Part shown: piece by piece, positions 28,943 to 31,310 of the stretch | Layout of the letters: the number at the start of each line of letters is the position of its first letter | Position numbering within the stretch: the first letter of the stretch is position 1 | DNA from: Ralstonia sp. TCR112 | Lineage (GTDB): Bacteria > Pseudomonadota > Gammaproteobacteria > Burkholderiales > Burkholderiaceae | Assembly: GCF_007997035.1 (NCBI RefSeq) | Contig: NZ_VOSS01000081.1 | Span: forward strand, 1 to 36,912 | Reading direction: 5' to 3' | DNA length: 36,912 nucleotides | Notes under the pieces: generated by a model | Database searches by the model: none | Told to the model about the DNA's origin: nothing | What the model saw: only the letters and a program-made list of their open reading frames with translations | Made by a program: the position numbers and the translations under genes

Positions 28943-29209
28943 ATGAAACAACACGCCATGATCGCCGCCGCCCTGGGTAGCCTGCTCGCGCTGGGCGCAC
29001 TGTCGACGCCGGTGCAGGCCGCCGACGCTGCCGGCAAGGAAAAGTGCTACGGCGTGGCCAAGGCCGGCCAGAACGATTGCGCCAGCCCCGGCAGCGCGCA
29101 CGCCTGCGCCGGCCAGTCGAAGATCGACAAAGACCCGATGTCGTGGAAGTACGTGCCGGCCGGCACCTGCGCGCAGATGGGCGGCACGATGCAGGCTCCA
29201 TCGAAGTAA
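28943..29209 (+). CDS. bufA1: Bufferin precursor peptide BufA1 (DUF2282)
   Basis: An 88-aa precursor of a ribosomally made, post-translationally modified peptide. It has a cleavable Sec signal (MKQHAMIAAALGSLLALGAL to VQA, cleavage near residue 26), unusual for RiPPs but standard for bufferins. The mature part holds four cysteines at 35, 46, 55 and 76 in the conserved contexts EKCYGVAKAGQNDC, AHACAGQSK and PAGTCAQMGG. In characterised bufferins the central cysteines are converted to thiooxazole-type rings by the MNIO enzyme and the product binds copper in the periplasm; that outcome is inferred here from family and neighbourhood. AAGGAG precedes the ATG by 8 nt. It heads a four-gene operon. 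Confidence 0.93.
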   Translation: MKQHAMIAAALGSLLALGALSTPVQAADAAGKEKCYGVAKAGQNDCASPGSAHACAGQSKIDKDPMSWKYVPAGTCAQMGGTMQAPSK

Positions 29210-29231
29210 CGCGCGACGCCGGGTGACCGCC

Positions 29232-30098
29232 ATGCAGACCGCTCTGCCACCTTGCGCCGGCGCAGGCCTGCGCGCGCCGCACTTTCCCGCCCTGCTGCAC
29301 GGGGAAGCCCGCTTCCCGTGGGCGGAAGTGCACAGCGAGAACTATCTGTATGGCGGCCCCGCACGTGCGGCGCTGCTGGCTGCGCGAGAGCAGCAGCCGG
29401 TAAGCCTGCACGGCGTGGGCATGGGGCTTGGCAACGCAGATGGGCTGGACGTCGAACACGTTCGCGCCATCGCTGCCCTGGCGGACGCCGTTGCGCCTGC
29501 CGCGATTTCCGAGCACCTGTGCTTCAACCGCAGCGGCGCACAGGTCGTCAACGATCTGCTGCCGCTGCCCTATTCCCGCGAATCGCTCGACATCGTCTGC
29601 GCCAACGTCATGCGCGCACAGGACATCCTCAAGCGGCCGCTGCTGATCGAGAACATCGCTGCATACATCGACTGCCGCACGCTGGTCGACGCCGACGACG
29701 CCGTCTCCGAAGGTGCATTCTTGACCGCCCTCGCCCGACGTACGGGCTGCGGCATCTTGCTGGACCTGAACAATCTGTACGTCAACAGCGTGAACCACGG
29801 CGTGACGGTCGAATCGGTCCTCGCCGACATCGACCCAACGCTGGTCGGCGAGATTCACCTGGCCGGCTTCAGCGTGGAAGACGGCATGCTGATCGACACG
29901 CACAGCGCGCCCGTCCATGCGCCCGTCTGGGCGTTGTACGACGCGTGGATTGCCAAGCACGGCCCGCGCCCGACGCTGATCGAATGGGACGCTGAACTGC
30001 CGCCCGTGCAGGTGTTGCTGGACGAAGCGGCACGCGCCCAGGCGGTACTCAATCGCCACGCCCACGTCATGCGGGAGCCACGCCATGCGACTGCCTGA
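29232..30098 (+). CDS. bufB: BufB, MNIO-family RiPP-modifying enzyme (DUF692)
   Basis: A 288-aa multinuclear non-heme iron-dependent oxidase with a TIM-barrel fold that modifies cysteines in the bufferin precursor. Metal-ligand motifs visible in order are EVHSENY (32-38), SLHGVG (His60), SEHL (Glu94, His95), LLIEN (Glu140), LLDLNNLYVNSVNHG (Asp178, His189), EIHLAG (Glu207, His209), IDTH (Asp222, His224) and LIEWD (Glu251). The position after AG in EIHLAGF is often histidine in relatives, as I recall, and is Phe here. The ATG at MQTALPP has GGTGA 6 nt upstream; a GTG three codons earlier is possible. It is 22 nt after bufA1 and overlaps bufC by 14 nt. Confidence 0.95.
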   Translation: MQTALPPCAGAGLRAPHFPALLHGEARFPWAEVHSENYLYGGPARAALLAAREQQPVSLHGVGMGLGNADGLDVEHVRAIAALADAVAPAAISEHLCFNRSGAQVVNDLLPLPYSRESLDIVCANVMRAQDILKRPLLIENIAAYIDCRTLVDADDAVSEGAFLTALARRTGCGILLDLNNLYVNSVNHGVTVESVLADIDPTLVGEIHLAGFSVEDGMLIDTHSAPVHAPVWALYDAWIAKHGPRPTLIEWDAELPPVQVLLDEAARAQAVLNRHAHVMREPRHATA

Positions 30099-30843
30099 CT
30101 GGGAAGCGCACCTCGTCGGCGCACTGACGCATTCCGTAAGCGACGCTGAAACGCGTGGCATCGCCATCTACCGCAATGCGCGCCTGGCCATTCTGCGCAA
30201 CGCATTGGCGGGGGCCTACCCCGTCTGCCGCGCGCTCGTCGGCGACGACTGCTTTGATGCGCTCGCGCGCGACACGCTGACCGCGCAGGCATCTACGTCC
30301 CCGAATTTGCATCGCTACGGGAATGCGTTGCCGGACGTCATTGCGCAATCGCCATTGGCGCAGAGCGTGCCCTATCTGGCCGATGTGGCGCGACTGGAAT
30401 GGTGCGTGCATTGGGCGCATTACGCCCCGGACGCACACGTTGAAGCCCCTGACGCCACGCTGCTCGCGCAGCCTGCAGACACCATCTGCGCAAGCCTGGC
30501 CAACGGTGCGCAGTGGGTGGCGTCGCGGTGGCCGGTCGTGTCGATCTGGCGCGCGCACCAGGCTGACGCAACCATCGCGCTCAATGAAATCAATCTTGGA
30601 GTGGGAGAAGCCGCGGCGATTGCCGTGCGCGGGCATCGCGTTGCCGTGCTCGATCTTGATCCTGCGACCGCCACGTTCCTCGCCGCTTGCGAAGCTGAGA
30701 CTTCGCTTCAAGCGGCGCTCGAAACCACGTTAGCCGAGCGGCCGGATTTTGATCTGACTGCATGCCTGTCCGGCCTCTATCGCTCGGGGCTGCTCGCACT
30801 GTCTGCCTGCCCAACAACCTCGTCTACTGGAGAGACGCCATGA
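30085..30843 (+). CDS. bufC: BufC, bufferin MNIO partner protein (DUF2063)
   Basis: A 252-aa protein of the DUF2063/HvfC-BufC group that acts with the MNIO enzyme, probably binding the precursor and presenting it. The N-terminal domain shows the pattern GIAIYRNARLAILRNALAGAYPVCRALVGDDCFDALARD (about residues 25-63), and LPDVIAQSPLAQSVPYLADVARLEW near residue 95 is the next conserved block. The C-terminal half (about 150-250) is a variable recognition domain. It overlaps bufB by 14 nt and its TGA overlaps the DoxX ATG, so the operon is translationally coupled throughout. No catalytic residues are expected. Confidence 0.92.
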   Translation: MRLPDWEAHLVGALTHSVSDAETRGIAIYRNARLAILRNALAGAYPVCRALVGDDCFDALARDTLTAQASTSPNLHRYGNALPDVIAQSPLAQSVPYLADVARLEWCVHWAHYAPDAHVEAPDATLLAQPADTICASLANGAQWVASRWPVVSIWRAHQADATIALNEINLGVGEAAAIAVRGHRVAVLDLDPATATFLAACEAETSLQAALETTLAERPDFDLTACLSGLYRSGLLALSACPTTSSTGETP

Positions 30844-31310
30844 ACACCCTCACCACGACGTTTGCCCCGCTTACGCGCCTGCGCGCGTCGTTCGATCGGC
30901 TTGCCGGTCCGCAAAGCACGCTGTGTTCGGTCATCCTGTTGATCGCCCGGGCGTATCTCTTTTACGTGTTCTTCCGCTCCGGCCTGACCAAGCTGCACGA
31001 CTGGGACACGACGGTGCTGCTCTTCACCGAGGAATACAAGGTGCCGCTGTTGCCGCCCGCACTGGCAGCAGCGCTCGGCACGTTCGGCGAACTGGTTTTC
31101 CCTTCTCTGATGCTGGCCGGCGTCGTGCCACGGCTGGCGGTTGTCGGGCTGTTCTTCGTCAACGTGGTGGCGGCGGCCTCGTACTGGGCCAATCTGTCGG
31201 CATCGGCCATCGAATTTCATTTTGTGTGGGGCGTGCTGATTGCGCTCGTGGCAACGGTGGGACCGGGTTGGCTGGCGGCGCAGACCCTCTGGCAGCGCCG
31301 GACGCGTTAA
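30840..31310 (+). CDS. DoxX-family inner-membrane protein of the bufferin operon
   Basis: A 156-aa protein with four hydrophobic segments. The first carries the DoxX pattern LLIARAYLFYVFFRSGLTKLHDWDTT (about residues 32-57), and later ones include LGTFGELVFPSLMLAGVVPRLAVVGLFFVNVVA. DoxX proteins frequently close bufferin operons; their contribution is not settled, with redox or quinone-linked functions suggested. The ATG overlaps the bufC stop (ATGA) and has GGAGAG 8 nt upstream. No clear terminator follows before the BON-domain gene, so readthrough is possible. Confidence 0.9.
   Translation: MNTLTTTFAPLTRLRASFDRLAGPQSTLCSVILLIARAYLFYVFFRSGLTKLHDWDTTVLLFTEEYKVPLLPPALAAALGTFGELVFPSLMLAGVVPRLAVVGLFFVNVVAAASYWANLSASAIEFHFVWGVLIALVATVGPGWLAAQTLWQRRTR

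What the first reader, a model, noticed from the sequence alone, without database searches (positions are those of the whole stretch)
28943..31310. Complete bufferin RiPP operon (BufA1-BufB-BufC-DoxX)
The four genes are in canonical order with overlapping stops and starts. The precursor has an exported signal and four cysteines in conserved spacing. MNIO-modified, signal-peptide-bearing RiPPs were described only recently, and the product of this lineage's operon is not known to me. The mature sequence (Cys35, 46, 55, 76) and the Phe in BufB's EIHLAGF differ in detail from what I recall of the model system, so the modification or metal could differ.
Basis: partly seen in the sequence, partly recalled or inferred. 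Interest (0 to 1): 0.7.

Follow-up and report, generated by a model that had tools for sequence, protein, structure and literature searches.

The report
Copper-binding peptide operon in Ralstonia
This is the Ralstonia version of a known bacterial operon that makes a small, chemically modified copper-trapping peptide; its cysteine pattern and enzyme active site look ordinary, and the one open point is what switches it on.

Summary
The four genes are real and correctly identified: a Buf1-type bufferin operon (bufA1-bufB-bufC-doxX), the counterpart of gigPABT of Cupriavidus metallidurans, which it matches in order and sequence. It is single-copy here, present in 15 of 16 Ralstonia genomes, under purifying selection and in conserved synteny. 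The cysteine spacing 10-8-20 lies in the family range 10-(6,7,8)-20. The Phe of EIHLAGF sits at a variable position (H, F, Y, G, N, P, C), while the nine positions equivalent to known iron ligands are invariant in 87 of 87 compared sequences. BufC's model matches MNIO partner proteins. Two of three gene junctions overlap; bufA/bufB do not, and bufB probably starts at 29232. The C. metallidurans operon lies beside a sigma factor/NrsF pair; no NrsF was found in this genome, and a 45-bp block upstream of bufA is conserved across 15 Ralstonia. Product, metal and inducer are inferred, not shown. New member of a known kind; low interest.

The parts
28810..28854 (+). conserved upstream block (candidate promoter/operator) with two GGAAC elements 31 bp apart
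   Evidence: 29 of 45 columns invariant in 15 Ralstonia versus 29 of 102 fourfold-degenerate sites of bufB and 5 of 48 columns just upstream; no second copy in the genome above the control level; function inferred
28943..29209 (+). bufA1 (DUF2282 bufferin precursor, 88 aa); signal peptide about residues 1-26 by eye; Cys 35, 46, 55, 76
   Evidence: PF10048 85.7 bits; 48% identical to C. metallidurans GigP over 65 aligned positions
29232..30098 (+). bufB (MNIO bufferin maturase, 288 aa from ATG; the mechanical ORF starts at GTG 29223)
   Evidence: PF05114 303.4 bits; NCBIfam MNIO_BufB 316.1 over cut-off 310; start codon by conservation; ligand positions invariant
30085..30843 (+). bufC (DUF2063 plus RRE-like partner protein, 252 aa)
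30840..31310 (+). doxX (DoxX-family membrane protein, 156 aa), GigT-like
   Evidence: PF07681 49.3 bits; 42% to GigT over 72 positions; HvfX model 44.9, below its cut-off 80

Best explanation
A Buf1-type bufferin operon of the Ralstonia core genome. BufA1 is made with a Sec signal peptide. In the cytoplasm BufC, through its RRE-like domain, presents it to BufB, a multinuclear non-heme iron enzyme, which oxidises the two central cysteines (Cys46 and Cys55) to 5-thiooxazoles. The peptide is exported and its signal removed, Cys35 and Cys76 form a disulphide, and the mature peptide of about 62 residues traps excess copper (perhaps also gold) in the periplasm. DoxX has an undefined accessory membrane role. 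Shown here: gene content, order, conservation, conserved ligand positions, predicted fold of BufC. Inferred from published relatives: modification, export, metal, induction.
For: Family hits; same order and 30-48% identity to all four gigPABT products, an operon shown to be copper- and gold-induced with a minor part in copper resistance (PMC10304878 passages) and stated to be a bufferin operon (PMC12452194 passages; PMC13192273 passages); four Cys in family spacing; nine ligand positions and the EWD Asp invariant; BufC model matches NGO1945 and TglI; purifying selection; 15 of 16 Ralstonia genomes.
Against: No chemistry, metal binding or expression was measured. The NCBIfam models for HvfC and HvfX score below cut-off, and the precursor matches only the BufA2 model, below its cut-off. 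In C. metallidurans, deleting gig alone had no effect on copper resistance in the parent strain. The NrsF regulator of the C. metallidurans and Caulobacter operons was not found, so induction cannot simply be carried over. The comparison loci were fetched with patterns that include LDLNN and IEWD residues, so invariance at those positions is partly built in; that at the other positions is not. DoxX was not modelled.
Confidence: 0.9

Rival explanations
1. Same operon and chemistry, but the physiological metal is mainly gold or another soft metal, not copper.
For: The related operon was named for gold induction and responds to gold and copper, as does the Legionella GIG promoter (PMC5413113 passages); MerC fusions in the family suggest other metals; a CusA/CzcA-family efflux pump lies downstream in synteny.
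Against: Published bufferins act on copper (PMC12452194 abstract); the efflux pump's metal is unknown; nothing in the peptide sequence points away from copper.
Confidence: 0.12
2. BufB of this lineage makes a different Cys modification because its active site differs.
For: Product not characterised in Ralstonia; Phe at the LAG-x position.
Against: The nine iron-ligand positions are invariant and Phe is a common alternative in enzymes next to ordinary Buf1 precursors; the structure of oxazolin, another product of this enzyme class, was revised to 5-thiooxazole (PMC13097082 abstract).
Confidence: 0.04
3. The operon is a decayed or silent remnant.
For: No sigma-70 consensus promoter found and no dedicated regulator recognised beside it.
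Against: Four open frames, dN/dS medians 0.08-0.17, 15 of 16 genomes of the genus, conserved upstream block.
Confidence: 0.02

Closest known systems
gigPABT operon of Cupriavidus metallidurans CH34 (GigP, GigA, GigB, GigT)
   Same: Same four genes in the same order; 48, 43, 30 and 42% identity; GigP passes DUF2282.
   Different: gig is divergent from rpoQ and an NrsF-family anti-sigma gene; Ralstonia has neither beside this operon. Middle Cys spacing is 7 in GigP, 8 here; His, not Phe, in GigA.
SigF-controlled operon CC3254-CC3257 of Caulobacter crescentus
   Same: Same domain order DUF2282, DUF692, DUF2063, DoxX (PMC3511200 passages).
   Different: Controlled by SigF and its DUF1109 negative regulator; sequences not compared here.
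GIG operon of Legionella pneumophila
   Same: Described as similar to the C. metallidurans GIG operon, with DUF2282 and DUF692 named in the paper; promoter responds to gold and copper (PMC5413113 passages).
   Different: Carried on an integrative element in a subset of strains, here a genus-wide locus; sequences not compared here.
Buf2 bufferins and EGKCG captophorins (oxazolin, fontiphorin)
   Same: MNIO plus DUF2063/RRE partner, Cys-derived thiooxazoles (PMC12452194: introduction, first part of the results and two further sections; PMC13097082: first part of the results and one further section).
   Different: Precursor here has four Cys and no EGKCG repeats; BufA2 model 32.1 against cut-off 60.

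Membership tests
Buf1 (DUF2282) bufferin operon | Precursor matches DUF2282 with four conserved Cys | tested here: met
   85.7 bits against cut-off 22.4; Cys 35, 46, 55, 76; spacing in family range
Buf1 (DUF2282) bufferin operon | Sec signal peptide on the precursor | tested here: inconclusive
   Seen by eye in the translation; no predictor was available
Buf1 (DUF2282) bufferin operon | MNIO maturase directly downstream with conserved iron-ligand positions | tested here: met
   NCBIfam MNIO_BufB 316.1 over 310; nine ligand positions invariant in 15 Ralstonia and 72 comparison sequences
Buf1 (DUF2282) bufferin operon | PME-type 1 partner: DUF2063 plus RRE domain | tested here: met
Buf1 (DUF2282) bufferin operon | DoxX gene (frequent core gene) | tested here: met
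   PF07681 49.3 bits
Buf1 (DUF2282) bufferin operon | Sigma factor and NrsF genes (found in some Buf1 clusters, not required) | tested here: not met
   No NrsF match in the genome, 97.6% complete; RpoQ-like hit in only 7 of 97 collected stretches, NrsF-like in 5, so not a defining gene
Buf1 (DUF2282) bufferin operon | Thiooxazoles on the two central Cys; copper binding; copper induction | not testable with these tools
   needs expression, mass spectrometry and metal assays
Buf2 bufferin | BufA2 model and six conserved Cys | tested here: not met
   32.1 bits against 60; four Cys only
EGKCG captophorin / oxazolin | Repeated EGKCG motifs | tested here: not met
   absent from the translation

The most novel reading that the evidence does not exclude
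In Ralstonia the bufferin operon is switched on by a metal sensor other than the SigF/NrsF pair, through the conserved 45-bp block upstream of bufA. [quoted passage not shown] metallidurans.
Probability: 0.35. Interest if true: 0.4.

Novelty: new member of a known kind. Interest (0 to 1): 0.2.

Why it matters
The remaining question worth testing is regulation: no NrsF was found in 14 of the 15 Ralstonia genomes that carry this operon, and in C. metallidurans RpoQ is reported as not essential for gig expression. A short conserved upstream block gives a defined target for that question.

Full report
What is there. Each passes its Pfam cut-off: DUF2282 85.7 bits, MbnB_TglH_ChrH 303.4, DUF2063 62.6, DoxX 49.3. 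NCBIfam's bufferin maturase model MNIO_BufB gives 316.1 against a cut-off of 310. The HvfC and HvfX models score below their cut-offs (47.4 of 142; 44.9 of 80), and the precursor matches only the BufA2 model, below cut-off (32.1 of 60). Two junctions overlap (14 nt between bufB and bufC, ATGA between bufC and doxX), but bufA and bufB do not. The listed GTG start of bufB at 29223 is lost in 2 of 15 Ralstonia sequences, while ATG 29232 is kept in all 15, so I take 29232 as the start.

Host and distribution. The best named relatives are Ralstonia (87-95% identity in 10 loci, two of them labelled only Burkholderiaceae); the next is Pseudogulbenkiania at 53% (80 loci kept of 114 that encode a relative). 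In the genus, 15 of 16 genomes have bufB; the one without is 88% complete. The own genome shows one MNIO and one DUF2282 match. In a sample of the family, 95 of 299 genomes have DUF2282, 15 of them in this genus. All ten named loci have bufABC-doxX followed by a BON-domain gene and the outer-membrane and adaptor genes of an efflux pump. Median dN/dS of the window against 14 Ralstonia sequences is 0.083, 0.112, 0.168 and 0.115 for bufA, bufB, bufC and doxX.

The two supposed oddities. I collected 97 sequences with bufB: 15 distinct Ralstonia including the window, 10 duplicates of these (identical 200 nt upstream of bufA), and 72 comparison loci, of which L018 and L019 are second copies inside Ralstonia genomes. 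Most were fetched by patterns from this BufB, so they lean towards its relatives. A first script found a clean four-Cys precursor in 56 of the 72; a recount with a stricter pattern adds L089 and L097, giving 58: 26 with 8, 7 with 7 and 25 with 6 residues between the middle Cys, each with 10 before and 20 after. Of the 14 left, 10 have no precursor hit, L058 and L063 have an extra Cys in the middle, L055 has another pattern and in L062 the frame appears disrupted. The window's 10-8-20 is therefore ordinary. At the position of Phe in EIHLAGF the 72 enzymes have H 41, F 14, Y 9, G 4, N 2, P 1, C 1. Positions equivalent to the nine iron ligands listed for TglH (His71, His107, Glu151, Asp184, Asn187, His216, Asp229, His231, Glu258; PMC10880893 passages) are His63, His98, Glu143, Asp181, Asn184, His212, Asp225, His227 and Glu254 counted from the GTG. 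I matched the later ones through the alignment and the first three by motif. All are invariant in 15 of 15 and 72 of 72, as is Asp256 of EWD, which I equate by motif with the proposed catalytic base FonB-Asp249 (PMC13097082 section; FonB itself was not aligned). Two of the fetching patterns (DLNNLYVN, TLIEWDAE) contain Asp181, Asn184, Glu254 and Asp256, so invariance there is partly built in. TglH has Gly opposite the Phe. Phe occurs with both the 8 and the 6 spacing, and so does His. The variation thus gives no sign of another reaction or metal.

Known counterpart. I fetched the gig region of C. metallidurans CH34 (L104). All four products align in the same order: 48% over 65 positions, 43% over 281, 30% over 217 and 42% over 72. 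[quoted passage not shown] Later papers state that gig operons are bufferin operons (PMC12452194 passages; PMC13192273 passages). In Buf1 the central Cys are the modification sites and the first and last form a disulphide (PMC12452194 figure legend). The original bufferin paper was not read. Ralstonia is not named in the main text of PMC12452194 (0 occurrences), and searches pairing Ralstonia with DUF692, bufferins, MNIO or DUF2282 listed no paper on this operon in Ralstonia (listings only, open-licence library).

Regulation, the open point. In C. metallidurans the operon is divergent from rpoQ and an anti-sigma gene, which matches NrsF at 245 bits; in Caulobacter the operon depends on SigF (PMC3511200 passages). 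NrsF was not found in this genome, and the C. metallidurans protein finds a match in only 1 of 16 Ralstonia genomes: G012, beside its second buf copy (L018). This genome does have 25 matches to the sigma region-4 family elsewhere, which I did not follow. Among the 97 sequences an RpoQ-like frame lies within the fetched stretch in 7 and an NrsF-like one in 5 (flanks are shorter in the unnamed loci), so lacking the pair is common in this set. Upstream of bufA, 28810-28854 is conserved in 15 Ralstonia: 29 of 45 columns invariant, against 29 of 102 fourfold-degenerate sites in bufB, 16 of 38 in bufA, 7 of 58 in bufC, 10 of 56 in doxX, and 5 of 48 columns just upstream of the block. It holds two GGAAC elements 31 bp apart. 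No other copy stands out in the genome, and the ten other upstream regions tested lack it. A SigF-like sequence with 2 mismatches lies at 28769-28794, at chance level and outside the conserved block. I read the block as promoter or operator; that is inference.

Mechanism and limits. Shown: gene content, order, conservation, ligand positions, predicted fold of BufC. Inferred from named relatives: Sec export, thiooxazoles on Cys46 and Cys55, disulphide Cys35-Cys76, copper trapping in the periplasm, accessory role of DoxX. Nothing here measures chemistry, metal or expression.

Noticed in passing
32881-36912: Outer-membrane factor, periplasmic adaptor and the start of a CusA/CzcA-family efflux pump (cut by the window end; 456 bits, partial) follow the buf operon; outer-membrane factor and adaptor are present in 10 of 10 named Ralstonia loci. 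Its metal is not clear.
   Followed up: partly
32322-32723: MerR-family regulator with one Cys, near its C-terminus; below cut-off for every NCBIfam model listed.
   Followed up: partly
L044, L052, L054, L055, L081: BufB and BufC occur in a single open frame, that is, apparently natural MNIO-partner fusions.
   Followed up: partly
L042, L048, L053: doxX lies between bufA and bufB instead of at the end of the operon.
   Followed up: no
L018 (G012 contig C10) and G011:C2:1792543-1792692: A second buf copy with RpoQ-like sigma and NrsF-like genes beside it in one Ralstonia genome, and a second DUF2282 match in another.
   Followed up: partly
L058, L063: Precursor frames that are longer and by eye carry other domains (Cupriavidus gilardii, Pseudomonas sp. 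K18), with an extra Cys in the middle segment; fusions of this kind are mentioned in PMC12452194.
   Followed up: no
28182-28712: Lys/Ala-rich protein (weak DUF6496 match, below cut-off) upstream of the operon, next to an H-NS-like gene.
   Followed up: no
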